This document shows, piece by piece, positions 1-27,904 of a stretch of 27,904 nucleotides of DNA. The notes under the pieces were generated by a model. It made no database searches and had not been told where the DNA came from. It was given only the letters and a program-made list of their open reading frames with translations. The translations under genes and the position numbers were made by a program. The stretch's first letter is position 1, and the number at the start of each line of letters is the position of its first letter. Source of the stretch: a virus; IMG/VR virus record IMGVR_UViG_3300037502_000514, positions 1-27,904 of that record. One strand, 5' to 3'.

Positions 1-3
1 AAC

Positions 4-33
4 TTGCTTGTTTAAAATATAGTCTTATATTTG
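4..33 (+). promoter_or_regulatory. Bacteroidetes-type promoter upstream of the sigma-like gene
   Basis: A TTG at 4-6 is followed by a 19-nt spacer and TATATTTG at 26-33. This fits the Bacteroidetes consensus of TTTG or TTG, about 19-21 nt, then TAnnTTTG. The start codon of the sigma-like gene lies 17 nt further on, so the leader would be very short. It is the only good plus-strand match I saw before position 21,000, so it may start the long late transcript. Confidence 0.6.
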
Positions 34-50
34 TTTAGAATTTAATCAAA

Positions 51-578
51 ATGGATGCACTAAAAGTATTAGCAGACCATCACAAAGAATGGGTAAAGAT
101 TGTCCGTTCATTTGGAGAGCAAGACCTTGCAGAGGATGTTGTGCAGGATGTTTACCTGAGAATTGTCAAGTACAACTACGAGGAGAAGATACTCAAAGAC
201 GGAAAACCAAACATCGCTTTAATGTGGATGATGCTGAGAAATAGAGCATTTGAAATAAACAAAACGGGTAGTGTGCAGTTTTTATCTTTAGATGAAGTAA
301 GAGGAGTAGCAGACGAAGAATCCGAATTAGATAAACACGAAGCCTTAGAGCGATTACACCAAAGAATAAACGAGGAGATGGAGAACTGGCATTGGTACGA
401 TTCAATGTTATTTAAAGTCTATAAGGAGGGAAACGCATCTATGAGAGACATAGCTAAAGATTCAGGCATCAGCTTAACCTCGATATTTAACACGCTAAAG
501 AACTGCAAGGAAAGATTAAAAGAAGAAGTCGGAGAAGACTACCAAGATTACATAAACACGGATTACGATTTAATATAA
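51..578 (+). CDS. Sigma-70/ECF-like RNA polymerase sigma factor
   Basis: The 175-residue product looks like a small sigma factor. Residues 1-75 resemble region 2, with an acidic GEQDLAEDVVQDVYLRI helix and an aromatic/basic MWMMLRNRAFE helix. A charged linker at about 80-105 follows, then a region 4-like helix-turn-helix at about 128-155 containing MRDIAKDSGISLTSIFNTLK. It is shorter than housekeeping sigma factors and close in size to ECF types. It heads the packaging operon directly behind a host-type promoter, so one plausible role is redirecting host polymerase to late genes. Such phage proteins could alternatively act as a DNA-binding packaging factor next to terminase. The fold is fairly clear; the target promoters are unknown. 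Confidence 0.72.
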   Translation: MDALKVLADHHKEWVKIVRSFGEQDLAEDVVQDVYLRIVKYNYEEKILKDGKPNIALMWMMLRNRAFEINKTGSVQFLSLDEVRGVADEESELDKHEALERLHQRINEEMENWHWYDSMLFKVYKEGNASMRDIAKDSGISLTSIFNTLKNCKERLKEEVGEDYQDYINTDYDLI

Positions 579-583
579 TTAAT

Positions 584-964
584 ATGGCAAAGAGAAAAGC
601 AAAAGGACTCGGAGATACTATCGAGCAAATAACCGAAGCAACAGGAATCAAGAAATTAGTAAAGTTTGTAGCAGGAGAAGACTGCGGATGCGATGAGCGT
701 AAGAAGAAGCTCAACGAGTGGTTTCCTTATCGTCAACCTGAGTGTTTAACTGAGGAGGAATACAACTGGCTTACGGAAACACGAATCCTCGAAAAGGACA
801 CATTCAAACCAACTGAAGTAACAAGAGTAAGAGAAATCTATTCAAGAGTAATGAAAGTACGTTTAGAGCCATCATCTTGCGCTTCTTGCTTTAGAGAAAT
901 AGTATTTAACTTAAGAAAAGTATACGATGCCTATACCGAAACCGCAACCTCAGGAGAGCAATAA
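584..964 (+). CDS. Conserved phage protein, Cys-rich, unknown function
   Basis: The product has 126 residues with a basic N-terminus (MAKRKAKG), then GDTIEQITEATGIKKLV and a CGC pair (C34, C36) followed by DERKKKLNEWFPY. A second Cys pair, C99 and C102, sits in SSCASCF, so a zinc-binding fold is possible. The arrangement of a GIKKLV helix, a CGC motif and LNxxFPY recurs in small proteins near terminase in Bacteroidetes and other environmental phages, as I recall, but I know of no assigned function. It starts 5 nt after the sigma-like gene, and its 3' end overlaps the next small gene by 38 nt in another frame. Confidence 0.7.
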   Translation: MAKRKAKGLGDTIEQITEATGIKKLVKFVAGEDCGCDERKKKLNEWFPYRQPECLTEEEYNWLTETRILEKDTFKPTEVTRVREIYSRVMKVRLEPSSCASCFREIVFNLRKVYDAYTETATSGEQ

Positions 965-1106
965 AGAGTTCATCCAACGATGTATGATGAATGACGTAAT
1001 GGTCAGAGAGTATGACCAAGACCAACGATACGCAATCTGCAGAGAACAACTACAAAAACACGAAATAGAAAATGGCAAAAGTAGGAAGACCAAGAAAGAT
1101 AGATAG
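927..1106 (+). CDS. Small phage protein with FIxRCM...QRYAIC motif
   Basis: This 59-residue ORF overlaps the gene before it by 38 nt and the terminase small subunit by 35 nt. It fills what would otherwise be a 107-nt gap. It reads MPIPKPQPQESNKEF, then IQRCMMNDVMVREY, then DQDQRYAICREQ. The pattern of a Pro-rich start, EF-I-x-R-C-M, acidic residues, then QR-x-A-x-C-x-x-Q recurs in phage head-region and protease-associated proteins, either alone or as a terminal segment, which is the main reason to call it real. The spaced Cys residues could bind metal. Function is unknown. Confidence 0.7.
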   Translation: MPIPKPQPQESNKEFIQRCMMNDVMVREYDQDQRYAICREQLQKHEIENGKSRKTKKDR

Positions 1107-1530
1107 CCCTGATACCCTCCTCAAACTATTCAGACAATACAAGACTTGGGTAAAAGACAATCCACGATACAAGTACACACTAAACCAAAGAAGCGGAGAG
1201 ATGGTTGCAGAACCGCTTGAAGTTCCCTTGTCAATGGAGGGGTTTGAGGTGTGGGCATTCGAGAAACACGACCTTTGGATTGAGCATTATATTAAGAATA
1301 CTAATGAAGCCTACGAAGAATTTTGCTCCGTCTCTACATATATAAAGCGAGAAATACGCTCAGACCAAATCAACGGAGGCTTAGTAGGTCAGTACAATGC
1401 GAACTTAACCGCACGTTTAAATGGACTAACTGAGAAGACTGAGACTACAGTAACGATGGAGATGCCGTTGTTTCCTGAAGAACCAAAAGCAATAGACGCA
1501 GATGTTCAAACGAACTACCTCGATAAATAA
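1072..1530 (+). CDS. terS: Terminase small subunit (DNA-packaging protein)
   Basis: The 152-residue protein begins MAKVGRPRKIDSPDTLLKLFRQYK, with a basic DNA-binding start and a helix typical of small terminase/gp3-type packaging proteins. The centre (about 52-75) contains VPLSMEGFEVWAFEK, and a long helix with VSTYIKREIRSDQINGG follows. The NLTARLNGLTEKTE segment near residue 110 is a common C-terminal feature of TerS proteins. It lies immediately upstream of the large subunit and overlaps it by 29 nt, as expected for the pair. TerS would recognise the packaging site and load the large subunit. The call rests on these motifs and on position. Confidence 0.82.
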   Translation: MAKVGRPRKIDSPDTLLKLFRQYKTWVKDNPRYKYTLNQRSGEMVAEPLEVPLSMEGFEVWAFEKHDLWIEHYIKNTNEAYEEFCSVSTYIKREIRSDQINGGLVGQYNANLTARLNGLTEKTETTVTMEMPLFPEEPKAIDADVQTNYLDK

Positions 1531-2662
1531 AATCCTCTCTCTAAAAAGACGGATTAAAATCATTCAAGGCGGAACCTCGGCTGGAAAGACTTTTGGAATC
1601 CTTCCGATACTTATAGACAAATGCACTAAAGAAAAGGGCTTAGAAGTCTCCGTAGTAGCTGAGACGATACCTCACTTGCGTAGAGGTGCGCTTAAAGACT
1701 TCCTGAAGATAATGCGATGGACTAATCGTTACTTTGACGATAGGTTCAATAAGACCTTGCTCAGATACGACTTCGCTAATGGCTCATCAATAGAGTTTTT
1801 CTCAGCAGACGATGCCAGTAAGCTACGAGGTGCGAGACGTGACATCTTATACATCAACGAGTGCAACAACGTAACATTCGAGGCATACAACGAATTAGCT
1901 ATCCGTACCAAACGTGAGGTCTACTTAGACTTCAATCCTGCGAATGAGTTTTGGGTACACAAGGAACTAAAAGACGAACCCGACACGGACTTCATCATCT
2001 TAACCTACAAAGACAACGAAGCATTAGACGAATCAATCGTAAGTCAGATAGAAAAGAACCGTGACAAAGCAGCTACGAGTTCTTACTGGGCAAATTGGTG
2101 GAGAGTCTACGGACTTGGAGAGGTAGGTAGTCTTGAAGGAGTAGTGTTCAACAATTGGAAGGAGATAGACACGATACCTGATGAGGCTAAGTTGGTAGGC
2201 ATCGGACTTGACTTCGGTTACACGAATGACCCTACTGCTGCGATAGGAATCTACAATTGGAATGGAAAGCGAATAGTAAACGAAATTGTTTACCGAACTG
2301 GTATGGTCAACTCAGACATCGCTAAGATACTTCCGTTAGGTGTGATTATTTACGCTGATAGTTCTGAGCCTAAATCAATCGAGGAGATAAGACGCTACGG
2401 AAAGACGATAAAAGGAGTGACTAAGGGTAACGACTCTATCAACTACGGTATTGACGTAATGCAAAGGCAGGAATATTTAGTAACCAAATCAAGTACAAAC
2501 CTAATCAAAGAGCTGAGGAGTTATTGTTGGGATACTGACAAGCAAGGAGTCAGGATGAACAAACCGATAGACCACTTCAATCACGCTATTGACGCACTAC
2601 GTTATCACGAGATGGAAGCACTCGGACTAAAATCAAACTATGGACAATACAACATCCGATGA
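1502..2662 (+). CDS. terL: Terminase large subunit
   Basis: The 386-residue packaging motor contains both enzymatic halves. The ATPase half has Walker A GGTSAGKT (residues 23-30), Walker B DILYINE with the catalytic Glu at 120, and a coupling motif LDFNPAN at about 152-158. The RNase H-fold nuclease half has the acidic residues D237 (GLDFGYTNDP), D286 (YADSSEP) and D364 (HAIDALRY). The layout resembles PBSX-type large terminases. The protein would pump DNA into proheads through the portal and cut the concatemer. It overlaps terS upstream and the following small gene by 23 nt. Confidence 0.96.
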   Translation: MFKRTTSINKILSLKRRIKIIQGGTSAGKTFGILPILIDKCTKEKGLEVSVVAETIPHLRRGALKDFLKIMRWTNRYFDDRFNKTLLRYDFANGSSIEFFSADDASKLRGARRDILYINECNNVTFEAYNELAIRTKREVYLDFNPANEFWVHKELKDEPDTDFIILTYKDNEALDESIVSQIEKNRDKAATSSYWANWWRVYGLGEVGSLEGVVFNNWKEIDTIPDEAKLVGIGLDFGYTNDPTAAIGIYNWNGKRIVNEIVYRTGMVNSDIAKILPLGVIIYADSSEPKSIEEIRRYGKTIKGVTKGNDSINYGIDVMQRQEYLVTKSSTNLIKELRSYCWDTDKQGVRMNKPIDHFNHAIDALRYHEMEALGLKSNYGQYNIR

Positions 2663-5600: not shown

Positions 5601-7954
5601 TGAATAGAACCGTACAACTATATATCGAGGGTCAGCGCATTGAACTCTTCAACGATGAGACTATAAACGTAACATCGTCAATTCAAAACGTACAAGACCT
5701 ATCTAAAACATATACGGACTTTTCGCAGGGATTTACCGTTCCTGCCAGTTCGCACAATAACGCAATCTTTGAACATTGGTATCAATCAGATGTCAACGCT
5801 ACGACTGACCCGAACTTACGCAAAGACGGATTCATTGAGATAGACCTAACTACCTTTAGAAAAGGAAAGGTTCAATTAGACGGAGCAACACTTACAAACG
5901 GAAAGCCGTCAGCTTATAAGTTAACTTTCTATGGAGAGGGCGTAACACTAAAGGATTTATTCGGAGAGGATTTATTATCTGATTTGGACTTTACGGCACT
6001 ATCTCACAATTTTACATCTGACCAAGTTGCAACTCGCATACAAGATAGTACCAATTTATATGACGTAAAATATCCGCTAATTACATCGAATCGTATTTGG
6101 GAATATCAAAGTACGCCTGTTGACGTGCCTCTCCCAAATTGGTTAACGGCTACTTTAACTAATAACGATATTCATACAACTTCAGGAGCGATAGATAAAG
6201 ACGAATTATTCCCTGCCGTCCGTGTTACTAAAATAATAGAAGCTATTGAAACTAAATACGGAATCAATTTTAATGGAGCGTTTTTAGGAGATGAACGCTT
6301 TACTAAATTGTTTTTATGGTTTAAGAACAAGGAGCGTTTTATTGCTTTGTCTGATTCAGCAGATGTAGATTTCACTACTGTAACTCCAACGTTTACAACA
6401 TACGATTTAACATCTACGGTAAACACAACTGACAATTCGATCCACGTTGAATACATCGCAGGGGTTATTTTGCATAGAATAGAAATAAACGTTACTTCAG
6501 TTTCTTCTGCATCTGATTATTATATTGACGTTTACCAAAACGGAAACTTATTTAACTCAATTCAAGGTTCTTCAGTTAATTCTTATGAGCTTGATTTCAT
6601 TTCTAATGTTTCAGGATTAGATTCAACATATACTTTCAAGGTAAGGACTGAGGGTGCTAACAACATTGCCTTATCAACTGAATACAGGGTTTATTATTTT
6701 TCAGGTCTTTCATTCTTGCAGGATTATGTTACTATAGCTTGTAATAACGTAAATACATCGGCAAACATTAATCTATCGGCTAACGCTCCGCAAATGAAAG
6801 TGGCGGACTTTATCAAGGGAATAATGCTACAGTTCAATATGACTATTTACTCAATTAATGAGAATGAGTATTGGATTGAACCGTTGGACGATTGGTATGC
6901 AAAAGGCGCAGTTGTGGACATTACACAATACACCGATGTTGATAGTATCGAACTTCAAAGAATGCCTCTTTACAAAAAGATATCATTCAATTTTCAAGAT
7001 TCAGAATGCTTCCTAAACAAGTATTTTAGCCAAACTTTCAATCGTAACTACGGAGATACATCTTATCAATACAATTACGATGGCGGTGAATTTACAATCG
7101 AAGTTCCTTTTGAAAATTTACTTCAAACCAAATTCAATGGAACGCAAGAGATTCAATTAGGTTACTCTTTAAACTCAGAGTTTGCTCCGTATATTCCTAA
7201 GCCAGTACTTCTCTATCAATACACGAATCAAGCAACTGACTTTAAATTTCACGATGATGGAGGCGGGCATACAACAATTACTAACTACACTCCATTTGGT
7301 CAAGACTTAGAATTTAACCTATACGATATTACGCTAAACTTCGCTCCTGAGACCTCAACGATGTTGGAGATTCCGATTCAAGAAACGAGCTTTAGTCAAT
7401 ACTACTTCAGTTACCTCTACAATCTTTACAACTTAAAGCAACGTTTAGTCAACGTAAAGACGAACCTACCTACAAGTCTTCTTACTGAGCTTCAGTTAAA
7501 CGATAGGCTAATCATAAGAGATAAGCGTTACATCATTAACGAGATGCAGTCTAATCTTACTACAGGAGATGTAAACTTTCAGTTGCTACTTGACTTCAGA
7601 CCCGTTAAGAATTTAACCTTTAAACCGCCAAAAGTAAGTCCGTTAGGAGGTAATGTTTCAGTTCCTGTTTTGAAACCTTACAAATCAGTACAAATAAATT
7701 TATCAAGCACTCAAACTGATGTTAAGTTTAGTGAATCTCGAGTATTTGAAGAAAAAATGGTTGAAGTAGAAATAGGAGCGCAACAAGTGCAAGTTCCTAT
7801 AACTACTGAGGACGGTAAAATTCTCGCAACTGAGAGCAGGGATGAATTGTCTACTGAAGCTGCAGTTGAAAACAGGGTGATTGATGTGACGTTTACTACT
7901 ATATATGAGAACGGCGAACAAGCAGAGGATACAATTTATATAATACAAGGGTAA
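5600..7954 (+). CDS. Large tail/baseplate protein
   Basis: At 784 residues this is the longest product in the window. The N-terminus has VQLYIEGQRIELFNDETI, then SKTYTDFSQGFTVPAS and LRKDGFIEIDLTTFRKGK, a pattern shared by Bacteroidetes phage baseplate-type proteins. A Ser/Thr/Tyr-rich beta region fills about 250-400. Next come MKVADFIKGIMLQFNMTIYSI and NEYWIEPLDDWY, reminiscent of hub/late-control proteins that read out a metric ring, and finally a beta C-terminus. I infer a role at the tail tip, possibly hub or receptor-binding platform. It contains one of only four GATC sites in the window (6439-6442). It ends in TAATG, overlapping the next small ORF. Confidence 0.6.
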   Translation: MNRTVQLYIEGQRIELFNDETINVTSSIQNVQDLSKTYTDFSQGFTVPASSHNNAIFEHWYQSDVNATTDPNLRKDGFIEIDLTTFRKGKVQLDGATLTNGKPSAYKLTFYGEGVTLKDLFGEDLLSDLDFTALSHNFTSDQVATRIQDSTNLYDVKYPLITSNRIWEYQSTPVDVPLPNWLTATLTNNDIHTTSGAIDKDELFPAVRVTKIIEAIETKYGINFNGAFLGDERFTKLFLWFKNKERFIALSDSADVDFTTVTPTFTTYDLTSTVNTTDNSIHVEYIAGVILHRIEINVTSVSSASDYYIDVYQNGNLFNSIQGSSVNSYELDFISNVSGLDSTYTFKVRTEGANNIALSTEYRVYYFSGLSFLQDYVTIACNNVNTSANINLSANAPQMKVADFIKGIMLQFNMTIYSINENEYWIEPLDDWYAKGAVVDITQYTDVDSIELQRMPLYKKISFNFQDSECFLNKYFSQTFNRNYGDTSYQYNYDGGEFTIEVPFENLLQTKFNGTQEIQLGYSLNSEFAPYIPKPVLLYQYTNQATDFKFHDDGGGHTTITNYTPFGQDLEFNLYDITLNFAPETSTMLEIPIQETSFSQYYFSYLYNLYNLKQRLVNVKTNLPTSLLTELQLNDRLIIRDKRYIINEMQSNLTTGDVNFQLLLDFRPVKNLTFKPPKVSPLGGNVSVPVLKPYKSVQINLSSTQTDVKFSESRVFEEKMVEVEIGAQQVQVPITTEDGKILATESRDELSTEAAVENRVIDVTFTTIYENGEQAEDTIYIIQG

Positions 7955-16647: not shown

Positions 16648-17226
16648 ATGGCAGAAGTAAAAATATCAGCACTAACATCGGCAACGACTCCGCTTGCTGG
16701 TACGGAGGTAGTTCCGATTGTGCAGGGAGGAGTAACAAAAAAAGTAGCAGTTTCTAATTTTGGAGGTGCTGCAGTAAATCCAACGTCTACTTATATTCCT
16801 TATAATAATTCGGGAACATTTGCAGACTCGGGATTAAATTATAGTTCCAATGTAGTTAAAACTATTTTTGACGGTTTAACTTCAATTAATAAACAAGGAG
16901 GAATCAGAATAACAGGTAATTCAGGCACACCGAATAATAATTTTACAACTGAAATAGGCGATTATTTAGGCACTACGGGACAAACTGTTTTTACTGTTTA
17001 TAGTAACGGAAATATTACAGGATCTACAGGAAATGGTGCTATTCAATTTAATGCAAATGGAGGTGTAACATTACAAGATGTTACGCTCACCAACAGAGTA
17101 GTTTTAGGAGGTTCTGAGTTACAATGGAATGGTTCTTTCGGAGGAGCAAAAGGAGGAAGTGCTTTTTCAATTCCTATTTATTTATCAGGATTGGGAATGA
17201 CAGTTCACATTCCTTTGTATATGTAA
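16648..17226 (+). CDS. Tail fibre-like protein
   Basis: The 192-residue protein opens with MAEVKISALTSATTPLAGTE, then VVPIVQGGVTKKVAVSNF, a frequent N-terminal attachment module of phage tail fibres and structural appendages. The rest is Gly/Asn/Thr-rich and beta-repeat-like (TYIPYNNSGTFADSGLNY, GNGAIQFNANGGVTLQDV), typical of trimeric fibres. It is short for a full host-binding fibre, so it could be an adaptor or a short fibre. An A-rich leader precedes the ATG. It holds one of the four GATC sites (17021-17024), fitting the rapid exchange usual for fibre genes. Confidence 0.72.
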   Translation: MAEVKISALTSATTPLAGTEVVPIVQGGVTKKVAVSNFGGAAVNPTSTYIPYNNSGTFADSGLNYSSNVVKTIFDGLTSINKQGGIRITGNSGTPNNNFTTEIGDYLGTTGQTVFTVYSNGNITGSTGNGAIQFNANGGVTLQDVTLTNRVVLGGSELQWNGSFGGAKGGSAFSIPIYLSGLGMTVHIPLYM

Positions 17227-17675: not shown

Positions 17676-17823
17676 AGACGCAATCGGTTCAATGTATTTT
17701 ATAACGGGCTATGCTGCGTGTATAGCCCTTATGTTTGAGGGAGAACACTTGTATCAAAAGTTCTTAGCTTGTGCTTATGGCTTTTATCTAACGTGGCACA
17801 TCGTAAATCAGTATGAAAACTAA
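17665..17823 (+). CDS. Small membrane protein next to the holin
   Basis: The 52-residue ORF (MKHKDAIGSMYFITGYAACIA, LMFEGEHLYQ, KFLACAYGFYLTWHIV) has two hydrophobic stretches, at about 9-23 and 32-47, separated by a short polar loop. It overlaps the previous ORF by 11 nt and the holin by 11 nt. Size, two membrane segments and position suggest a holin accessory or antiholin, but this is inference. GC-richer codons begin to appear just after it. Confidence 0.55.
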   Translation: MKHKDAIGSMYFITGYAACIALMFEGEHLYQKFLACAYGFYLTWHIVNQYEN

Positions 17824-18235
17824 ATCTCTCTTTTTGGTTTCTTTTTTATCCGTGTTAGCTCCCGTCAAGCCGATGGTGCTGATGGCTATTGCTACTATCA
17901 TACTCGATATGTGTTTTGGTATTTGGCGAAGCGTAAAGAAAAACGGCTGGGCTTCTATTCGTTCGCGTCGTTTGTCGCATACCATTTCTAAAAGCTTGCT
18001 TTATTCGGGTGCAATTACGTTTATTTTCTTACTTGAAACGTATGTAGTTGCGGACATTCTAGGCCACTTTATAGCTATTGACCTAGTATTAACTAAAGCC
18101 TTTACATTCTTTTGCGTTGTAACCGAAGTAAAAAGCATTAACGAAAGTTACCATAGCGTGACGGGTGTCAATGTTTGGGATCGTTTTATAAAGTTCGTAA
18201 AGCGAAGCAAAGAACAACTAGAAGAATTAAAATAA
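17813..18235 (+). CDS. Holin (phage_holin_4-like)
   Basis: The 140-residue membrane protein has hydrophobic segments at about 5-32 (LVSFLSVLAPVKPMVLMAIA, then TIILDMCFGIW), 59-80 (LLYSGAITFIFLLETYVV) and 82-105. The loop after the first segment carries RSVKKNGWASIRSRRLSHTI, the basic 'SxxxRxxxxK' region of the holin_4/toxin-secretion family. A charged C-terminus (DRFIKFVKRSKEQLEEL) faces the cytosol. It would form holes at lysis and release the endolysin encoded next. It contains three of the six CTAG sites, one of four GATC and one of three GGCC in the whole window, so it looks foreign to the rest of the genome. Confidence 0.78.
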   Translation: MKTKSLFLVSFLSVLAPVKPMVLMAIATIILDMCFGIWRSVKKNGWASIRSRRLSHTISKSLLYSGAITFIFLLETYVVADILGHFIAIDLVLTKAFTFFCVVTEVKSINESYHSVTGVNVWDRFIKFVKRSKEQLEELK

Positions 18236-18327
18236 TGTCAAGTTTATTGCGCAAAAAACTGGACATTTCTACGTTAAAAACAAGCTATGAAACTAGACAT
18301 TTCCAAAATCAAACAAGTAAGGCTTAA
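18235..18327 (+). CDS. Possible 30-residue ORF bridging holin and endolysin
   Basis: A short frame starting on the final A of the holin stop codon (TAATG) reads MSSLLRKKLDISTLKTSY and ends inside the amidase gene in another frame. It has no recognisable motif. The coupled start is suggestive, but it may simply carry ribosomes into the endolysin start at 18287. Low confidence that the peptide matters. Confidence 0.25.
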   Translation: MSSLLRKKLDISTLKTSYETRHFQNQTSKA

Positions 18328-18934
18328 GGAAACGCAATATTTTTCAGAAGAGGCTACCAAAACACAAATCTATTTACACCATACGGCGGGTAGCGGTAAC
18401 GCCGAAGCGGTTAGTAGGTACTGGAACGGGACAAGCGAACGCATTGCAACGGCTTTTGTTGTCGGACAAGACGGCTTAATTGTTCAATGCTTTTCGTCTA
18501 GACATTGGGCGTGGCATTTGGGTATTGATCAAAAGGAATTTAGGGGACAAGGCGCACCCTACACCAACTTAAATAAAACGTCGGTCGGTATCGAGGTTTG
18601 TAACTGGGGCTATCTTAAAGAAAAAGGCGGTAATTTTTACAATTACGTAGGCTCAAAAGTTCCCGCGTCTATGGTTACAACTTTAGAGCAACCTTACAAG
18701 GGTTACAAACATTGGTATAAATATACGGATGCACAAATTGAAAGCACCCGACAATTACTTGTTTACCTTTGCGAAACTTACAACATCCCGAAAACATACC
18801 GCCCCGAAATATTCGGTTTAGACATCGAGGCTTTCAAAAACACGAAAGGAATCTATACCCACAATTCGGTTCGTAAAGACAAGTCGGATATTTACCCTTG
18901 TCCAAGAATGATTGAAATGTTAAAGAACTTATGA
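18287..18934 (+). CDS. N-acetylmuramoyl-L-alanine amidase endolysin (Amidase_2)
   Basis: The 215-residue enzyme has the Amidase_2/PGRP layout. IYLHHTAG gives the first zinc ligand (His31 or His32), TAFVVGQDGLIVQ is the second strand, HWAWHLG lies at 73-79, TSVGIEVCN holds the catalytic Glu103, and GIYTHNSV gives His192. The third ligand is Cys205 (IYPCP) or Asp201. No separate cell-wall-binding domain and no signal peptide are seen, so it depends on the holin to reach the wall, where it cuts the bond between muramic acid and the stem peptide. Its codons (GCC, GCG, CCC, GGG) are richer in GC than those of the neighbours. It carries the GATC at 18527 and CTAGs at 18293 and 18498. Confidence 0.92.
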   Translation: MKLDISKIKQVRLKETQYFSEEATKTQIYLHHTAGSGNAEAVSRYWNGTSERIATAFVVGQDGLIVQCFSSRHWAWHLGIDQKEFRGQGAPYTNLNKTSVGIEVCNWGYLKEKGGNFYNYVGSKVPASMVTTLEQPYKGYKHWYKYTDAQIESTRQLLVYLCETYNIPKTYRPEIFGLDIEAFKNTKGIYTHNSVRKDKSDIYPCPRMIEMLKNL

Positions 18935-19344: not shown

Positions 19345-20408
19345 GGAAACAAAATCGCTATCGCCTTAAGCACGATGAGATTGAAATCATCGAACAATAT
19401 AGAGCGATAAAAGAGGAGTCCAATTCAATGGGCTTGAACGATGCTGACGTTAAACACGGATGGCTAAAATCTAATAAGGCTTCGCTTTTCTTTAAGAATC
19501 CGAACTACAAACCTGAGGAGGAGCAGAATTACGAGCAGATTCGTGCCAGTATCTTAGATGAGATTCGTGAACACGCTCCGAAATATCCTATAATAACACG
19601 GAATCCATCAACTGACGGACACTTATTAGTCATAGACCCTGCCGACATCCACATAGGTAAGCTCTGCGACGCTTTCGAGGTAGGAGAAGTATATAACAAC
19701 CAAATTGCAGTACAACGTGTCTTAGAAGGCGTTCAAGGCATTTTAGACAAAGCAAGCGGATTTAATATCGACAAAATACTGTTTATAGGCGGAAACGACA
19801 TCTTACACATTGATACTCCAAGACGGACTACTACCTCAGGAACTCCTCAGGACACGGACGGAATGTGGTACACTAATTTTCTAATAGCTAAAAAACTATA
19901 TGTCGAAATTCTTGAAAAACTCATTGGGGTTGCTGATGTTCATTTTACTTTCAATCCCTCAAATCACGATTATACTCACGGCTTCTTTCTTGCTGACGTT
20001 ATTCAAACTTGGTTTAAAGACGCTAAGAACATTACTTTTGACTGCTCTATTGCACATCGAAAAGGCTACCAATACGGAAAGAACCTTATCGGAACGACTC
20101 ACGGAGATGGAGCGAAACATCAAGACCTACCTCTATTGATGGCTACGGAGTTTCCTGTTGAGTGGTCTCAAACTAAGCACCGATACGTTTACACGCATCA
20201 CGTTCACCATAAAACTTCTAAAGATTACATCGGTGTTACTGTAGAGTCGTTAAGAAGTCCATCAGGAACTGATAGCTGGCATCATCGAAACGGCTATGCT
20301 CACGTTCCTAAAGCAGTAGAAGGCTTCATTCATCACAAAGAATTTGGTCAAGTCGCACGTTTGACCCATATATTTAGTGCATTATTTTTTGTATCTTTAT
20401 TGATGTGA
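19341..20408 (+). CDS. Calcineurin-like metallophosphoesterase, 3' end altered by insertion
   Basis: The 355-residue protein has the full metal-binding set: D102-x-H104 (DPADIHIG), GGND (150-153), NPSNHD (205-210), H254 (GTTHGDG) and the H-x-H cluster YTHHVHH (284-290). Phage members are often labelled as DNA polymerase II small subunit-like phosphoesterases; their substrate is unknown. The N-terminal 90 residues are helical and charged. The family usually ends near GQVARLTHIF (here residues 336-345), as I recall. The extra ten residues SALFFVSLLM seem to come from an inserted homing endonuclease segment directly after. It is coupled to the spanin by ATGA. Confidence 0.85.
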   Translation: MRKQNRYRLKHDEIEIIEQYRAIKEESNSMGLNDADVKHGWLKSNKASLFFKNPNYKPEEEQNYEQIRASILDEIREHAPKYPIITRNPSTDGHLLVIDPADIHIGKLCDAFEVGEVYNNQIAVQRVLEGVQGILDKASGFNIDKILFIGGNDILHIDTPRRTTTSGTPQDTDGMWYTNFLIAKKLYVEILEKLIGVADVHFTFNPSNHDYTHGFFLADVIQTWFKDAKNITFDCSIAHRKGYQYGKNLIGTTHGDGAKHQDLPLLMATEFPVEWSQTKHRYVYTHHVHHKTSKDYIGVTVESLRSPSGTDSWHHRNGYAHVPKAVEGFIHHKEFGQVARLTHIFSALFFVSLLM

Positions 20409-21072
20409 TAGGCATATATAAAATAACAAACCCAAATGGAAAAATATATATTGGTCAAAGTATCAATATAGAAAAGAGATTTTATAGATATTCTATAATA
20501 TCAACAAACGTAAATAAGCAAACTAAACTATATCGAAGTTTCTTAAAGTACGGAGTTGATAATCATAAATTTGAGATTATAGAACAATGCGGATGTCACG
20601 AATTAAATCAAAAAGAAAGACATTATCAAGAATTTTATAATTGCGTAAATGATGGCTTAAATTGCTATTATACTTCTACAAATGACAAAACTGGTAGTCC
20701 ATCATTAGAGACATTAAAACGAATGTCTGAATCTCAGAAAGGAAATCAAAATTGGCTTGGTAAAAAACATACTGATGAGGCAAAAGACAAAATATCAAAG
20801 TCTAATACAGGAAGAAGATATAGTGATATTGTCAATTTGTCAAAAGGAAGAAAAGGCCGTATTTCAAATAGAAAAGGGATATTTAGCGAAAATCATCCCA
20901 ATAGTAAAAAAGTATTTCAATGTGATTTAAATGGCAACGTTATAAAAGTTTGGCCTTGTATAATGGATATTGTAAGAGAATTAAATTATTCAGCAGGAAA
21001 TATATCGTCAGTTTGTAACGGAAGATTAAAAACATATAAAAAATCAATTTGGAGATTTTAACTCACATTTTT
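20376..21072 (+). mobile_element. Inserted homing endonuclease segment
   Basis: Removing this approximate 697-bp stretch would join ATA TTT (20370-20375) to TAG (21073-21075). The phosphoesterase would then end in THIF-stop, exactly where its family is expected to end. The segment is markedly AT-rich and holds both GGCC sites found outside the lysis genes. It encodes one protein, a GIY-YIG endonuclease. The ends are inferred from this reconstruction; a few bases of ambiguity remain because both flanks carry T-rich, TTTAGT-like sequence. Confidence 0.6.
20405..21061 (+). CDS. GIY-YIG homing endonuclease with NUMOD motifs
   Basis: The 218-residue protein begins (GTG start) with MIGIYKITNPNGKIYIGQS, containing both GIY (3-5) and YIG (15-17) elements and a downstream KRFYRY region. 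NUMOD3-type DNA-contact motifs follow (QKGNQNWLGKKHTDEA, then a KGRKGRISNRKG region). The C-terminus has a NUMOD1-type helix-turn-helix (VFQCDLNGNVIKVW, YSAGNISSVCNGRLKTY, KSIWRF). Such free-standing enzymes cut an uninterrupted site in a related genome and copy themselves in by repair. The GTG overlaps the phosphoesterase stop by 4 nt, so it may be translated by coupling. The low GC and the two GGCC sites set it apart from the backbone. Confidence 0.93.
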   Translation: MIGIYKITNPNGKIYIGQSINIEKRFYRYSIISTNVNKQTKLYRSFLKYGVDNHKFEIIEQCGCHELNQKERHYQEFYNCVNDGLNCYYTSTNDKTGSPSLETLKRMSESQKGNQNWLGKKHTDEAKDKISKSNTGRRYSDIVNLSKGRKGRISNRKGIFSENHPNSKKVFQCDLNGNVIKVWPCIMDIVRELNYSAGNISSVCNGRLKTYKKSIWRF

Positions 21073-21110: not shown

Positions 21111-21138
21111 AAGAGCCTCCTTAATCGGGGGCTTTTTT
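21111..21138 (+). terminator. Intrinsic terminator at the end of the late unit
   Basis: The stem runs from AAGAGCCTCC (21111-21120) to GGGGGCTTTT (21127-21136), with two G-U pairs and a TTAATC loop, and leads into six T (21133-21138). It lies about 50 nt after the last late gene and before the early promoter at 21224. Confidence 0.8.
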
Positions 21139-21223
21139 ATTTAATGTGAAAAAAATTTTACGTCTGAAACCCTTGTAAAATCAAGGAATTGAAAAAAACT
21201 TTAAAAAAAATGTAACTTTTTTG

Positions 21224-22188: not shown

Positions 22189-22595
22189 ACTTAGAACAAG
22201 TAAAAGAATACATCCAAGCTGAGGAGCTTAACGGAAAGAGCAGAGAGCAGTTCTACGTCTTTAGAAGACATTATCTATGTTGGGCATTGTATCGCTCTCA
22301 GGAGTTAACTTTAACTGAAATAGGAAGAATGTTTAATAGAGACCACTCAACTGTGTTGCATTGCATACGAAAACACGAAGAGTTGAAGAACGACAAATTG
22401 TATCAAAAGATGACTGAAACTTGTCAAGAGCTGATGGCAGAGCCTATAACCTTTACTAAACAAAGACGGAATATCTTTGATGACATCGCAAAGGCTACTA
22501 ACTTAGAAAAGCTACGACGAATCAGACGTTGGTTAAACGAAGGAAGATACGACCACCAAAATACTTTTCAACAAGTGAAACAAAACGTCAGTTAG
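22185..22595 (+). CDS. DnaA domain IV-like DNA-binding protein
   Basis: The 136-residue protein carries the DnaA signature in residues 41-62, LTLTEIGRMFNRDHSTVLHC followed by IR, preceded by the helix FYVFRRHYLCWALYRSQE. In DnaA this helix-turn-helix contacts the 9-mer boxes of the origin. There is no AAA+ ATPase domain or N-terminal helicase-loading domain, so it is a stand-alone DNA-binding module. The C-terminal half (IFDDIAKATNLEKLRRIRRW) is a separate helical region. It sits directly upstream of the replication protein and helicase genes and may direct replication or compete for host DnaA sites. Confidence 0.82.
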   Translation: MNLEQVKEYIQAEELNGKSREQFYVFRRHYLCWALYRSQELTLTEIGRMFNRDHSTVLHCIRKHEELKNDKLYQKMTETCQELMAEPITFTKQRRNIFDDIAKATNLEKLRRIRRWLNEGRYDHQNTFQQVKQNVS

Positions 22596-24351: not shown

Positions 24352-24653
24352 TGGACATCGGATTACAAAAAATCAAAACAAGTGCTAACCTTTGGACTAT
24401 AAAAAAACGAATCCAAAACGCACGAGAGAACATCTTAAAAACAAGACCTGATGCAGTTGACTACATCAAAGGCGCAGAGCAAAGCGAGGAGGAGTTATTA
24501 GAGGCTATCTCGTTTCTGACAAACCTATACGAACACGCAGTAGCGATAAGTAGAGAAAATACAATTCTCGCTAATCGAAACATAGAGCAAACACGAATAA
24601 TACACGAATTAGAAAACCAAATCAAGTACAATAAAATAGAAAACGAGTTATGA
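24351..24653 (+). CDS. Coiled-coil protein of unknown function
   Basis: The 100-residue charged protein (MDIGLQKIKTSANLWTIKKR...) has SEEELLEAISFLTNLYEHAV in the middle and an IHELENQIKYNKIENEL heptad-like end. It starts on the last base of the helicase stop and overlaps the next gene by 4 nt (ATGA). No enzymatic motif is seen. Position suggests a helicase or recombination accessory. Confidence 0.6.
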   Translation: MDIGLQKIKTSANLWTIKKRIQNARENILKTRPDAVDYIKGAEQSEEELLEAISFLTNLYEHAVAISRENTILANRNIEQTRIIHELENQIKYNKIENEL

Positions 24654-24907
24654 CAAAGACAAAAAAACTAGTAGCATTGACTGCTTTCCTTCCTGTGTTG
24701 GCAGATTTCATTGAAGATTTAAACGACCAATACGTTTTCAAACGTTCACTTAAGCGCAAGGCAAATATCCTCGCTGAGGAAATCCAACGAGTAGACCGGG
24801 AAATCCTACGAATAGACGGAGAGAACGCAGGTAAAATATTTGATGAGCAGATTCAGTTGCAGATTTTGTTTCGCCAATGGATTGAGGAAGTAATTGAACT
24901 TGACTGA
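24650..24907 (+). CDS. Hypothetical protein in the replication cluster
   Basis: The 85-residue protein has a basic start (MTKTKKLVALTAFLPVLADF), then FIEDLNDQYVFKRSLKRKAN and a helix to WIEEVIELD. It resembles the short helical proteins found beside NinG-type genes in Bacteroidetes phages. It holds the only CTAG site outside the lysis genes (24668-24671). It is joined to the NinG gene by a one-base overlap. Confidence 0.6.
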   Translation: MTKTKKLVALTAFLPVLADFIEDLNDQYVFKRSLKRKANILAEEIQRVDREILRIDGENAGKIFDEQIQLQILFRQWIEEVIELD

Positions 24908-25422
24908 TGCGCTGTAAGAACTGCAAGGATAAGTTCGAGCCTATCCGCTTCAATCATAAATACTGTTTGAAAGACGAATGTGTCCGTGCTTTTGTAGCCG
25001 AAGCTAAAGAGAAGCAATGGAAGCAGACCAAAACACGAATGAAAGCCGACCTCAAGACAACATCAGATTGGTTAAAAGAAGCACAGGTAGTCTTCAACAA
25101 GTACATAAGAGAACGAGATAAAGGATTGAACTGCATAAGCTGCGAAAAACCACCGCTCAAAAAAAACTGCGGACACTACTACTCTCAAGGAGGTCACTCA
25201 AATGTCAGGTTTGATGAGGACAACTGCCACTTACAATGCGAGCATTGCAACACTTATTTAAGCGGAAACCTACTGAACTATCAAATAGGTATTGAAAAAC
25301 GGATAGGAGCAGAAAGATTGATTGAATTACAAGGTAGAGCGCATTTAGAAAAGCGATGGTCAGTAGATGAACTGAAAGAACTGATAAAAAAATATAAAGA
25401 AAAGTACAACCAATTAAAATAA
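24907..25422 (+). CDS. ninG: NinG/Rap-like recombination protein
   Basis: The 171-residue protein has an N-terminal zinc-ribbon-like set, C3-x2-C6 and C20-x4-C25 (MRCKNCKDKFEPIRFNHKYC). A basic helical spacer with QTKTRMKADLKTTSDWLKEA follows, then the NinG core: FNKYIRERDKG, C76-x2-C79, NCGHYYSQGGHSNVRFDE (C88, H90) and CHLQCEHCNTYLSGN (C107, H108, C111, C114). NinG (lambda Rap) is a Holliday-junction endonuclease with an HNH-like core. It acts with the annealase and exonuclease encoded next, and its placement in a recombination cluster agrees. Confidence 0.9.
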   Translation: MRCKNCKDKFEPIRFNHKYCLKDECVRAFVAEAKEKQWKQTKTRMKADLKTTSDWLKEAQVVFNKYIRERDKGLNCISCEKPPLKKNCGHYYSQGGHSNVRFDEDNCHLQCEHCNTYLSGNLLNYQIGIEKRIGAERLIELQGRAHLEKRWSVDELKELIKKYKEKYNQLK

Positions 25423-25426
25423 TCTA

Positions 25427-25434
25427 TATATTTG
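25427..25434 (+). promoter_or_regulatory. TATATTTG −7 box before the ERF gene
   Basis: An exact TAnnTTTG box lies 23 nt before the ERF start. No good −33 element was seen. The leader ends ACGCTATG like that of the first early gene, where a full promoter is present, so this may be an activated or weaker early promoter. Confidence 0.5.
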
Positions 25435-25457
25435 TATAAACAATTAATTTTTACGCT

Positions 25458-25985
25458 ATGAAGAATTTATTTAAATCGTTGGCATCGTTCCAACAAGAAG
25501 TGCCTGTCATTCACAAGGCAACACAAGGTTACGGATACTCTTACGCAGACCTGCCGAAAATCTTTGAGGTAATCAATCCGTTGCTAAAAAAACACGGACT
25601 TGGCTTCACTCAAACCCTACACACCAAAGACGATGTTAATTACATTGCTACGATGGTGTTCCACGTTGAATCAGGAGAGAATTTAGAAAGTCTTGTTGCT
25701 ATTCCTTACGTTCAGCTTAAGGGTATGAATGACTTTCAGTCGTTTGGTTCAGGTGTAACGTATTACCGCAGATATGCACTCAGCTCTGCACTTGGTTTAG
25801 TAACTGACAAAGACACGGACGCATCAGGTGAGCAAGTTAAAACTGAGAAGAAACTACCTGCCATTGACCAAAAGCGTTTCAGCGCAGCAGTACAAGCTAT
25901 TGCAAAAGGTGAGTATACTCGTGAAAAGCTCGAAGCATCGTTTGCTTTAACTGAAGGTCAAATTGATATGCTCAACGCACTATGA
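25458..25985 (+). CDS. erf: ERF-family single-strand annealing protein
   Basis: The 175-residue protein has the ERF core in order: LASFQQEVPVIHKATQGYGY, SYADLPKIFEVINPLLKKHG, LGFTQTL, YIATMVFHVESGE and QSFGSGVTYYRRYALSSALG followed by DKDTDA. The 'GS..TYxRRYALxxALGLxxxxDxDA' motif (about 96-122) is diagnostic. ERF rings anneal complementary single strands during phage recombination and replication-linked repair. The C-terminus (AIAKGEYTREKLEASFALTE) is a small helical domain. It overlaps the exonuclease gene by 4 nt, forming an annealase-exonuclease pair. Confidence 0.93.
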   Translation: MKNLFKSLASFQQEVPVIHKATQGYGYSYADLPKIFEVINPLLKKHGLGFTQTLHTKDDVNYIATMVFHVESGENLESLVAIPYVQLKGMNDFQSFGSGVTYYRRYALSSALGLVTDKDTDASGEQVKTEKKLPAIDQKRFSAAVQAIAKGEYTREKLEASFALTEGQIDMLNAL

Positions 25986-26662
25986 AAGCTCTCAAAATTC
26001 GATGTTCTGCCATTGGTAAAATAATGGCAACACCTCGCTCTAAAAGCGAACTACTAAGCCAAACTGCCAAAACTTACATCCACGAACTTGTTTTAGAGGA
26101 GAAATACGGCATCAGAAAGGAGTTTTCAAGCCGTTACACGGACAAAGGAAACGCAGTTGAGGATTTATCTATCTCACTTGTAAACGATGTCTTAGACGTT
26201 AAATTTATCTACAAGAATGAGGAGTACTTTGAGAACGATTATATCAAGGGTACACCCGACGTAAACACGGAGGATATATTGCTTGACGTAAAAAGCTCAT
26301 GGGATGCTACTACCTTTCCGTTTTTTGATACCGAAATTCCTAATAAGGACTATTTTTACCAACTTCAGGGATATATGTGGTTGACCGGGAAACAACAATC
26401 AATGCTTTGCTACTGCCTTGTTGACACACCTATCGAAATGGTAGAGGACGAAATCAGACGTGCGCATTGGAAACTGCATAAAATTGACGAGGATTTAGAA
26501 TTGCGTGAGGAGGTTGAGAGTAAGCATCAGTTTTCACACATACCAAAAAACCGCAGAGTTAAAGTTTTCTATGTACAAAAAGACGAACAAGTAATTGAGC
26601 AGATAAAAGCTCGCATAGAAGACTGCCGATTGTATTACAATGCCTTAATCGAAATGCTATGA
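25982..26662 (+). CDS. YqaJ-like (PD-(D/E)xK) exonuclease
   Basis: The 226-residue nuclease has the lambda exonuclease-like active-site order: SAIGKIMATPRSK at the start, E60 in DKGNAVEDLS, D93 in KGTPDVN, then LLDVKSSW with D102 and K104, and YFYQLQGYMWLTG at about 124-136. These are the PD-(D/E)xK catalytic elements. With the ERF annealase just upstream it makes a two-component recombinase like Exo-Beta or YqaJ-RecT: it degrades one strand of DNA ends so the annealase can bind the other. The ERF gene's stop overlaps its start (ATGA). Confidence 0.88.
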   Translation: MKALKIRCSAIGKIMATPRSKSELLSQTAKTYIHELVLEEKYGIRKEFSSRYTDKGNAVEDLSISLVNDVLDVKFIYKNEEYFENDYIKGTPDVNTEDILLDVKSSWDATTFPFFDTEIPNKDYFYQLQGYMWLTGKQQSMLCYCLVDTPIEMVEDEIRRAHWKLHKIDEDLELREEVESKHQFSHIPKNRRVKVFYVQKDEQVIEQIKARIEDCRLYYNALIEML

Positions 26663-26850
26663 AAAAAAACATAATGATAGAAATTCTTGATAGATATGAG
26701 AAATCTATTAATGAACTATCATATTACAAAAGAAGAGTAGAAAATCACGAACAACAACTGAGAGTTGCTAACCGAGAAAACCAACAACTCAAAGTGAATG
26801 TTCATTTGCTTGAAGCAAAGATTGATGAACTTAAAAACACGGAACAATGA
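26659..26850 (+). CDS. Small coiled-coil protein
   Basis: The 63-residue protein (MKKNIMIEILDRYEKSINEL, SYYKRRVENHEQQLRVANRE, NQQLKVNVHLLEAKIDELK) has continuous heptad-like spacing and so is a likely coiled coil. It overlaps the exonuclease and the next gene by 4 nt each. Function unknown; it may pair with a recombination protein. Confidence 0.6.
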   Translation: MKKNIMIEILDRYEKSINELSYYKRRVENHEQQLRVANRENQQLKVNVHLLEAKIDELKNTEQ

Positions 26851-27146
26851 ACCAAGAAGTAAAAGACCAAGTAGTTTTATCCGTAATGGCGAAGTACGCT
26901 GAACGCTCTGCAACAGGCATACGAAAATACGGAGTAACATTAGACCGAGAAGACCTAACTATCTTTGATTGGATAAACCACGCTCAGGAAGAAGCTATGG
27001 ACTTCACGTTGTATTTAGAGCGCATCCGTAAAGAGATAAGCCTTGAAAAAGTTAAGAGCTTCAGCGAAGGATACCGGGAAGCAATGAAGCAAAACCAAAA
27101 GGCAGCTTTAATTGAGTTGAGCAACATGGACAAGTATAAGGGGTAA
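26847..27146 (+). CDS. MazG-like/small all-alpha NTP pyrophosphohydrolase-like protein
   Basis: The 99-residue helical protein contains ERSATGIRKYGVTLDREDLT followed by IFDWINHAQEEAMDFTLYLE. The sequence 'R...G..KYG.T..R.DL...DW...A.EE.MD...YL' is that of small phage proteins related to MazG/dATP-dGTP pyrophosphohydrolases. The EE-x-x-D helix could supply metal ligands. Only part of the usual catalytic set can be seen, so activity is uncertain. It would fit control of nucleotide pools in the replication cluster. Confidence 0.55.
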   Translation: MNQEVKDQVVLSVMAKYAERSATGIRKYGVTLDREDLTIFDWINHAQEEAMDFTLYLERIRKEISLEKVKSFSEGYREAMKQNQKAALIELSNMDKYKG

Positions 27147-27198
27147 AAATTGCCACATATCTAAACACGAAATGTAAAACCTTTAAACAACAAGAACA

Positions 27199-27357
27199 AT
27201 GAAAATAGAAATCACGCACTACGGACACAAAGCAAGCTATGAGTTCGACCACGAGGATGTGGAGCTTGAAGATTTGGTTTATCACCTTGAAAGGCTGATA
27301 AGACTAACGGGATACCATTTTGACGGAACATTAGAAATTGTAAACGAGGAGCAATGA
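27199..27357 (+). CDS. Small acidic protein, unknown
   Basis: The 52-residue ORF (MKIEITHYGHKASYEFDHED, VELEDLVYHLERLIRLTG, YHFDGTLEIVNEEQ) has a beta-alpha-beta pattern. A 52-nt gap without a clear promoter precedes it. It ends with a 4-nt ATGA overlap onto the next tiny gene. Sequence regularity and coupling support it. Confidence 0.6.
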   Translation: MKIEITHYGHKASYEFDHEDVELEDLVYHLERLIRLTGYHFDGTLEIVNEEQ

Positions 27358-27452
27358 AACCTAAACACGAATATATGGCAGCAATCGGCACAATGATACT
27401 TATTGGCACGATAGCAATAATCTTAGTAATCAATTTAATCTATAACATATAA
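27354..27452 (+). CDS. Tiny single-pass membrane protein
   Basis: The 32-residue ORF (MKPKHEYMAAIGTMILIG, TIAIILVINLIYNI) is a short polar N-terminus followed by one transmembrane helix of about 20 residues. It is coupled to both neighbours (ATGA upstream, TAATG downstream). A genuine small membrane protein is likely; its role is unknown. Confidence 0.5.
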   Translation: MKPKHEYMAAIGTMILIGTIAIILVINLIYNI

Positions 27453-27904
27453 TGGAAAACAAAACAAACACTGGAGCATTAACTTGTAATAAAAAGAAAT
27501 CTTGCGGATGTTTGACACCTACAAAATCAGCTGAAAATTCTATAAAATCAAGGTATAAGATTGTAAAAGAAGATGCGGGATATAGAAGTGTTTATGTTAG
27601 GTATAAACAAAATGCAAGAGCTCGAAAATTAAATTTTAATGTTGACTTTGATTATGCAGTAAATCTAATGAAATCAAAATGTAATTATTGTGGTATAGAG
27701 CCATCAAATTTGTTTTGGAAATCTTATTACAATGTTTATTACAATGGAATTGACAGAGTTGATAACTCAAAAGGATATGAAAATGACAATGTTGTATCTT
27801 GTTGCAAAATGTGTAACATAGCTAAAAACAACAATTCAGAAGAAGATTTCTTGAAATGGATTAAAAGACTAAGTGAATACCAACTACTAAAAGACGAAGT
27901 AAAA
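27452..27904 (+). CDS. HNH endonuclease, 3' end cut by the window
   Basis: The frame is open for 151 codons to the last base, so the stop lies beyond the window. Residues 12-20 (CNKKKSCGC) look like the second half of a zinc finger often found before such HNH domains. Residues 45-65 (RSVYVRYKQNARARKLNF) are the usual linker. The HNH part follows: C77-x2-C80 (CNYCG), NGIDRVDNSKGY (98-109) and NVVSCCKMCNIAKNN (113-127), then DFLKWIKRL. This is the phage homing-type HNH family. The first ten residues, MENKTNTGAL, instead resemble the start of a small DUF736-like phage protein, suggesting insertion into that gene. Confidence 0.87.
   Translation, partial: MENKTNTGALTCNKKKSCGCLTPTKSAENSIKSRYKIVKEDAGYRSVYVRYKQNARARKLNFNVDFDYAVNLMKSKCNYCGIEPSNLFWKSYYNVYYNGIDRVDNSKGYENDNVVSCCKMCNIAKNNNSEEDFLKWIKRLSEYQLLKDEVK

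What the first reader, a model, noticed from the sequence alone, without database searches (positions are those of the whole stretch)
1..27904. Near-absence of GATC, GGCC and CTAG across the window
Reading the whole plus strand by eye (all three words are palindromic), I found 4 GATC (6439, 17021, 18179, 18527), 3 GGCC (18062, 20855, 20952) and 6 CTAG (18059, 18083, 18218, 18293, 18498, 24668). With roughly 37% GC, base composition alone would predict about 80-90 each for GATC and CTAG and about 25 for GGCC (rough estimates). GATN words other than GATC are very common, so this is not a lack of GAT. Strong avoidance of several 4-bp palindromes is a known mark of long exposure to restriction-modification systems (MboI-like GATC, HaeIII-like GGCC); CTAG is rare in many bacterial genomes for other reasons.
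Basis: partly seen in the sequence, partly recalled or inferred. Interest (0 to 1): 0.75.

Follow-up and report, generated by a model that had tools for sequence, protein, structure and literature searches.

The report
Phage genome purged of restriction sites
This fragment of an uncultured bacterial virus holds almost no copies of at least six short DNA words that bacterial DNA-cutting enzymes recognise; its close relatives lack different sets, so missing words may tell which defences a virus has met.

Summary
In detail: GATC 4, GGCC 3 and CTAG 6, at exactly the places given. It is also incomplete. CATG (3), CCGG (3), CGCG (5) and CASTG (2) are equally scarce; all seven are at 0.05-0.18 of a codon-preserving null and below each of 500 draws. 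The window is a whole 27.9-kb IMG/VR fragment of a tailed phage, probably of Bacteroidota. In 31 related contigs the missing set changes between kin: GATC 19 v 0 at 92% identity, one contig without CTNAG (0 of 75 expected), one without the asymmetric word CCAG (0 of 134). Most of the sites lost between kin differ by synonymous changes. Half of the window's 24 leftover sites of the six tetramers lie in a lysis cassette (10) and a homing-endonuclease gene (2); the endolysin's nearest homologue sits in a distant virus that does not avoid them. Best explanation: host Type II restriction acting on a probably virulent phage, with hosts or enzymes changing over short evolutionary times. That mechanism is known (Rusinov 2018). 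The switching, the asymmetric-word elimination and the import of sites by gene transfer add to it. The host and its enzymes were not identified.

The parts
1..27904 (.). Whole virus record (IMG/VR, linear fragment), near-empty of GATC, CATG, CTAG, CCGG, CGCG, GGCC and CASTG
1502..2662 (+). terminase large subunit; no site of the six tetramers between 1 and 4400
   Evidence: phrog_2, 4.8e-37
12062..13012 (+). putative major capsid protein, by position and by its match to a Nonlabens phage P12024L protein (annotated there as hypothetical); used to find relatives
   Evidence: the name is an inference
17813..18235 (+). holin-like gene of the lysis cassette; holds CGCG 17964, CTAG 18059, GGCC 18062, CTAG 18083, GATC 18179, CTAG 18218; nearest fetched DNA 72-79% identical
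   Evidence: phrog_199, 4.9e-4, weak
18287..18934 (+). endolysin (Amidase_2), probably recently acquired; holds CTAG 18293, CTAG 18498, GATC 18527, CGCG 18664, all four at the same places in L271 (94.9% identical), a distant virus that does not avoid these words
   Evidence: PF01510, 1.8e-21
20405..21061 (+). GIY-YIG/NUMOD homing endonuclease; holds two of the window's three GGCC (20855, 20952); no DNA match in the clade loci searched
24650..27146 (+). stretch with six leftover sites (CTAG 24668, CCGG 24796, CATG 26298, CCGG 26385, CCGG 27074, CATG 27125); parts are 92.5-98% like L031, L062 and L027, loci that avoid CATG less (ratios 0.3-0.6), but only some of the sites are shared with any locus
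6439..6442 (.). isolated GATC site in a gene of the tail region
17021..17024 (.). isolated GATC site in a gene (16648-17226) that clusters with none of the 31 relatives' ORFs

Best explanation
The fragment belongs to a probably virulent tailed phage of Bacteroidota that has been selected, through many single-base and mostly synonymous changes, to lose the recognition sites of several Type II restriction enzymes met in its hosts (specificities like MboI GATC, NlaIII CATG, BfaI/MaeI CTAG, HpaII CCGG, FnuDII CGCG, HaeIII GGCC, TspRI CASTG; several enzyme names recalled). With few sites left, entering DNA escapes cutting without any protective gene. Different lineages have met different sets of enzymes, so the missing words change between close relatives. 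Genes freshly taken from viruses without this history, such as the endolysin, bring sites back. Shown here: the depletion, its independence from codon usage, its switching between kin, the mainly synonymous differences at lost sites, and the leftover sites in an endolysin gene shared with a distant non-avoiding virus. Inferred: that restriction is the selecting agent, that hosts or enzymes changed, the virulent lifestyle, and the direction of gene transfer.
For: Depletion against Markov and codon-preserving nulls, in each codon phase where more than five sites were expected. The six tetramers under 0.2 of expectation in the window are all palindromes; nine of 16 palindromic tetramers are eliminated in none of 31 contigs. 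Switching: 18 distinct eliminated-tetramer profiles in 31 contigs, the empty one included; at least 5 changes on the tree for CATG, 7 for CCGG, 3 for GATC. Kin pairs: GATC 19 v 0 at 92.0% identity, 10 of 10 aligned sites lost (9 synonymous) while other palindromes were 73% kept; window against G005, CATG 1 of 34 kept and CCGG 2 of 21 against a 44% background. CTNAG 0/75 in one contig, over 0.6 of expectation in the other 30. Lysis cassette at ordinary density; endolysin shared with non-avoiding L271, whose one matched structural-region protein is only 29% identical to the window's. Type II endonuclease families occur among 335 genomes of the class of a Flavobacterium MAG: HpaII 17, DpnII 9, HaeIII 3, ICEA (NlaIII-like, recalled) 5. 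F. psychrophilum CSF259-93 carries predicted CCGG, CCNGG and CGCG systems and a GATC methylase (PMC11837570, passages).
Against: No host was identified and no restriction enzyme was matched to this phage. The four endonuclease families are rare in the sampled class (1-5% of genomes). Phage-borne methyltransferases show no association with tolerated words (32 one-sided rank tests, lowest p 0.054), although specificities were unknown and numbers small. Milder lows in TCGA (under 0.5 in 14 of 31 contigs), CGNCG, ACNGT, TATA, TTAA and ACAG/CCAG words show biases not tied here to a known system. GCGC, where neither partner avoids it, was kept less often than the other palindromes in every one of the seven such pairs, down to 1 of 13 against a 29% background, so part of the low conservation of GC-rich words is not due to avoidance. 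Loss in one kin and regain in the other cannot be told apart by pairwise counts. The F. psychrophilum phage FpV9 is rich in CCGG (139/74) although a strain of that species has a CCGG system.
Confidence: 0.87

Rival explanations
1. The words are rare because of mutation or codon bias shared with the host, not because of restriction.
For: CTAG is rare in many bacteria (recalled). Several words, such as ACAG/CCAG, CGNCG and TCGA, are lowered in most of the clade.
Against: Shuffles that keep codon use still miss by 7.7-10.1 standard deviations for GATC, CATG and CTAG. Words switch between kin of similar base composition. A putative host-associated chromosome is not short of CATG, CTAG or CTNAG.
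Confidence: 0.05
2. The phages themselves carry site-specific endonucleases that destroy host DNA, and lack the sites as self-protection.
For: The window holds GIY-YIG and NinG-like endonuclease genes and a partial ORF with HNH-like cysteines (my reading); several relatives hold DNA methyltransferases.
Against: Seven words are missing at once and the set changes between kin. The GIY-YIG gene itself carries two of the three GGCC and clusters with an ORF of one of 31 relatives only (G010). The phage ORFs were not searched for restriction endonuclease families.
Confidence: 0.04
3. Defences other than orthodox Type II restriction (Type III, Type IIG, BREX or methylation-dependent nucleases) select against some of the words, chiefly the asymmetric ones.
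For: Asymmetric CCAG is absent from G005 (0/134) and nearly so from G010 (4/111); the window lacks CCAGA (0/27) and nearly lacks ACAGA (3/58) and ACAGC (2/35), on both strands.
Against: [quoted passage not shown] It is not needed for the palindromes.
Confidence: 0.15

Closest known systems
[quoted passage not shown] 2018, PMC6286503; parts 1-4 of 5 read)
   Same: Near-complete loss of 4-bp palindromic Type II sites in a dsDNA phage. That paper calls observed/expected under 0.1 eliminated and finds complete or almost complete elimination in about one-tenth of viral genomes.
   Different: Up to five palindromic tetramers eliminated in one contig (codon null), different sets in close relatives, a wholly absent asymmetric tetramer in one relative, and leftover sites in a probably acquired gene. 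The paper matched phages to host enzymes; this could not be done here.
S. thermophilus phages (PMC12322248; passages seen)
   Same: GATC, CCGG and GGCC commonly under-represented, other sites excluded in some genera only; 20% of the phages carry DNA methyltransferases.
   Different: Another host phylum. There GCTGG (the complement of CCAGC) showed no reduction, whereas in most contigs of this clade CCAG words are lowered.
T7-like, N4-like and T5-like coliphages of BASEL (PMC8594841; passages seen)
   Same: Resistance to EcoRI/EcoRV put down to near-absence of sites; sister genera of T5-like phages differ widely in EcoRV site number.
   Different: Few specificities, but measured by plating; here only sequence.
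Nonlabens phage P12024L (Inhavirus, JQ823123)
   Same: 32% identity over the capsid-like protein; terminase, portal, ERF, YqaJ and sigma-70-region genes annotated.
   Different: Does not avoid CATG 55/63, CTAG 149/97 or GATC 80/94; does avoid GGCC 0/20 and CCGG 2/20.

Membership tests
Phage restriction-site avoidance (Rusinov criteria) | observed/expected under 0.8 with over 15 expected; under 0.1 = eliminated | tested here: met
   GATC 0.05, CATG 0.06, CASTG 0.06 eliminated; CTAG 0.11, CCGG 0.15, GGCC 0.17, CGCG 0.18 under-represented by the codon null. Our nulls differ from the paper's CB statistic.
[quoted passage not shown]
   CCGG, CGCG and GATC appear in the R-M table of PMC11837570; RE_HaeIII, DpnII and RE_HpaII exist as Pfam families; the enzymes for CATG, CTAG and CASTG are recalled only.
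Phage restriction-site avoidance (Rusinov criteria) | host species encodes the cognate endonuclease | not testable with these tools
   Host unknown. In the class of a Flavobacterium MAG: HpaII 17, DpnII 9, HaeIII 3 and ICEA 5 of 335 sampled genomes.
Phage restriction-site avoidance (Rusinov criteria) | stronger in non-temperate phages | tested here: inconclusive
   No integrase or repressor among the 20 window proteins scanned with PHROGs or the 7 with Pfam; not every ORF was scanned and the record is a fragment.
Phage restriction-site avoidance (Rusinov criteria) | not matched by equal rarity in the host chromosome | tested here: inconclusive
   So for CATG, CTAG and CTNAG in 260 kb of genome G321, a binning partner of a related phage contig, not a proven host; its GATC is 0.46 and its GCGC 0.11.
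Phage protected by its own DNA methyltransferase | methyltransferase gene present and cognate word tolerated | tested here: not met
   No PF00145, PF01555 or PF02086 match in the window, which is a fragment; among 31 contigs (window included, G029 dropped) carriers of the first two do not tolerate any of eight words significantly more.

The most novel reading that the evidence does not exclude
The missing-word profile of each phage in this common clade is a readable record of the restriction enzymes its recent hosts carried, rewritten within about 8% nucleotide divergence. It reveals unknown enzymes, among them one with the asymmetric four-base specificity CCAG (strong enough to remove all of 134 expected sites) and further ones for ACAGA/CCAGA and ACAGC.
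Probability: 0.35. Interest if true: 0.72.

Novelty: new member of a known kind. Interest (0 to 1): 0.5.

Why it matters
Site avoidance by phages is known. Here hundreds of fragments of one clade offer a natural experiment: the same genes with different words removed. It would allow the pace and order of site loss and regain to be measured, the restriction arsenal of uncultured hosts to be guessed from virus sequence alone, and recent gene imports to be spotted by the sites they carry. The absent asymmetric word CCAG names a concrete enzyme specificity to look for.

Tried and rejected
Phage methyltransferases as the cause of tolerated words: tested for three groups (C5, short C5-like, N6/N4) and their union on eight words, 32 one-sided rank tests, none below p 0.05. 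The lists of carriers were typed, without G029.

Recombination with CATG- or CCGG-tolerant relatives as the source of the six leftover sites at 24650-27146: only partly borne out. CCGG 27074 is shared with L027, CATG 26298 with L030, CCGG 26385 with L036, L044 and L053, CTAG 24668 with four loci at 69-70% identity; CCGG 24796 and CATG 27125 are shared with none of the 20 and 2 aligned loci.

The endolysin as a marker of non-avoiding viruses in general: not so. Of 80 endolysin loci, 27 avoid the six words (pooled ratio under 0.35), 21 do not (over 0.7) and 32 lie between; the two nearest to the window's gene (L271, L272) are non-avoiders, the third (L273, the G005 contig) lies between and the fourth (L274) avoids (cut-offs mine). 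L272 and L271 have no CCGG (0 of 15 and 0 of 4 expected).

Host by genome scan: the terminase profile found 3 loci in genome contigs (60%, 56% and 40% identity: Sphingobacterium, a Flavobacterium MAG, a Dehalococcoidales MAG). The capsid-like protein rang in 14 of 395 genomes of the Flavobacterium MAG's class, one at 70% (G321) and the others at 30% or less; in the family of G321 it rang in 2 of 64, G321 itself and G402 at 25%. The host therefore stays open.

A special role for the 34-bp match to Erwinia phages at 21109-21142: it reads as a G+C hairpin followed by T's, one record (KhF2) calls it 'terminator', and Rfam gave nothing.

Paper searches on avoidance in uncultivated or metagenomic viruses and on kin and lost sites listed no title that describes this clade; for most of these only listings were seen, so it is no proof of absence.
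Full report
WHAT WAS CHECKED. The window is a whole IMG/VR virus record of 27,904 bases, classed as linear, so often a fragment. A second-order Markov expectation gives 95.5 GATC, 77.6 CTAG and 18.4 GGCC. A stricter null deals the window's own synonymous codons out anew, keeping every protein and the codon counts (95% of the window lies in the ORFs used). In 500 such draws the lowest count was 55 GATC, 37 CTAG and 9 GGCC, against 4, 6 and 3 observed.

CATG (3 against 53), CCGG (3 against 20), CGCG (5 against 28) and CASTG (2 against 34) are as scarce and also below the lowest draw, while GCGC and TGCA lie within the draws. GTAC, TCGA, TATA, TTAA, CGNCG and ACNGT are below the lowest draw too, at ratios of 0.26-0.85. 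So the null does not capture every bias, and in the window I interpret only ratios under 0.2. The depletion holds in each codon phase where more than five sites were expected; in phases with fewer expected it is not always seen (CCGG 2 against 2.0, CGCG 3 against 4.4).

WHAT THE VIRUS IS. It carries small and large terminase, tape measure, holin-like, Amidase_2 endolysin, ERF, NinG-like and exonuclease genes. The terminase is 54% identical to that of Flavobacterium psychrophilum phages, and a capsid-like protein is 32% identical to one in Nonlabens phage P12024L. Pooled over the loci of both scans and the window (some contigs appear twice), the six words are at 0.13-0.22 of Markov expectation, but each locus differs.

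SWITCHING BETWEEN KIN. I read 31 of the related contigs whole (over 23 kb, chosen for length). By the codon null, with G029 dropped because its core equals G008, seven tetramers are eliminated (under 0.1, 15 or more expected) in at least one contig, window included: CATG in 19 of 31, CTAG 17 of 31, GATC 14 of 31, CGCG 10 of 24, GGCC 9 of 14, CCGG 6 of 18, GCGC 2 of 28 (the second number being the contigs with enough expected). The other nine palindromic tetramers are eliminated in none. There are 18 distinct profiles, the empty one of four contigs included; by this strict cut the window itself has two, CATG and GATC. On a tree of ten proteins (short search) the fewest changes are 5 for CATG, 7 for CCGG, 2 for CGCG, 2 for CTAG, 3 for GATC, 4 for GGCC and 5 for GCGC (contigs with middling ratios or under 8 expected left out).

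Aligned codon by codon, close kin show what differs. G026 and G006 are 92.0% identical over 15,936 bases; of 10 GATC in G006 none is in G026, 9 of the differences being synonymous, while 73% of other palindromes are kept. Between G005 and the window (81.8%) 1 of 34 CATG and 2 of 21 CCGG are kept against a 44% background; the tolerated GCGC is kept at 39%. G020 shares none of the window's 83 CTNAG sites (background for this far pair 29%; but there the tolerated GCGC is also kept in only 1 of 13). G020 as a whole has 0 CTNAG of 75 expected, and the word is over 0.6 of expectation in the other 30 contigs. Pairwise counts cannot tell loss in one from regain in the other.

ASYMMETRIC WORDS. CCAG/CTGG is absent from G005 (0 against 134) and nearly absent from G010 (4 against 111); of the other 30 contigs 26 have it at 0.14-0.51 of expectation and four at 0.67-0.97. 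None of the window's 23 aligned sites is in G005 (19 differences synonymous), whereas 310 of 484 control words are kept. Of 117 loci of 6 kb or more, L035 (0/36), L003 (1/30), L009 (1/28) and L012 (1/21) are also near empty, besides loci of the G005 and G010 contigs. In the window CCAGA is 0/27, ACAGA 3/58 and ACAGC 2/35, and both strands are low, so it is not an effect on messages alone. I recall no orthodox Type II enzyme with the site CCAG; one paper search for it gave one listing, in which the word occurs once (that passage was not seen).

LEFTOVER SITES MARK AN IMPORTED GENE. Of the 24 leftover sites of the six tetramers, 10 lie in the 1,122-base lysis cassette, where the codon null expects 11.5, and two more in the GIY-YIG gene. 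The remaining 26.1 kb holds 12, against 233 expected. The endolysin is 94.9% identical over 646 bases to L271, a 5.8-kb fragment, the match beginning one base before the start codon, and all four endolysin sites lie at the same places there. L271 does not avoid the words apart from CCGG, of which it has none of 4 expected (CTAG 26/15, CGCG 16/18, GATC 6/6, GGCC 9/11, CATG 12/16); L272, second nearest, is alike. The window proteins of the structural region (10015, 14043, 15815) that find a match in these two are only 19-29% identical, against 94-99% for the endolysin. The clade members found over the cassette are 66-83% identical in DNA. The simplest reading is a recent import from a virus without this history; direction is inferred. 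Among all 80 endolysin loci both avoiding (27) and non-avoiding (21) viruses occur, with 32 between.

HOST. No host was found. One genome of the Flavobacterium MAG's class, G321, includes a 13.4-kb phage contig with a capsid-like protein that is 70% identical over 139 residues, up to the contig's end. That contig has CATG 0/32, CTAG 0/24, GATC 1/23 and CTNAG 0/27, while 260 kb of the same genome has ratios of 0.84, 0.76, 0.46 and 0.82. If the binning is right, the avoidance belongs to the phage. The genome's own low word is GCGC (0.11). Endonuclease families occur in 335 genomes of that class: HpaII 17, DpnII 9, HaeIII 3 (2 over the cut-off), ICEA 5 (2 over). F. psychrophilum CSF259-93 encodes 12 R-M systems, among them ones predicted for CCGG, CCNGG and CGCG and a GATC methylase without endonuclease (PMC11837570, passages). 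Against a simple match, phage FpV9 of that species has CCGG 139 against 74 expected, though it lacks CGCG (0/32).

PROTECTIVE GENES. No C5, N6/N4 or D12 methyltransferase match is in the window. In the 31 relatives, 11 records carry a C5-type match (in five of them a protein of 220-229 aa that matches the first quarter to third of the family) and 8 an N6/N4 match. Carriers do not tolerate any of eight words significantly more than others do.

VERDICT. The mechanism, avoidance of Type II sites by a phage, is known (PMC6286503). What this case adds is the clade-wide switching, the missing asymmetric word, and an endolysin that probably brought sites back.

Noticed in passing
window 21109-21142: 34 bases identical to a stretch of Erwinia phages and, over 31 bases, to a feature named 'terminator' in phage KhF2: an intrinsic-terminator-like hairpin after the GIY-YIG gene.
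   Followed up: yes
window 22185-22595: Protein with a DnaA C-terminal helix-turn-helix domain (PF08299, 1.3e-11) beside replication-like genes.
   Followed up: no
relatives G001, G003, G004, G006, G019: A 220-229 aa C5-methyltransferase-like protein that matches only the first quarter to third of PF00145; it may be a minimal or altered methyltransferase.
   Followed up: partly
relatives G006, G008, G023-G025, G028, G029, G031 (cluster 41): Proteins sharing an N-terminal part that looks ParB-like (my reading) joined to different ends; in some a methylase part follows, in others (G025, G028, G031) it does not: module swapping.
   Followed up: no
lysis enzymes of the clade: Amidase_2 type in 5 contigs (G000, G002, G005, G019, G030) and a GH108 type in 10 others (G004, G007, G009-G016), with no contig holding both: unrelated lysis enzymes replace one another.
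   Followed up: partly
L233 (Flavobacterium phage FpV9): Lacks AGSCT (0/26), CGCG (0/32) and nearly CATG (1/66) but is rich in CCGG (139/74): another strong profile, in an isolate.
   Followed up: no
window 27452-27904: Partial ORF at the fragment end with HNH-like cysteines (my reading; no Pfam match), 75% identical in DNA over 406 bases to L003.
   Followed up: no
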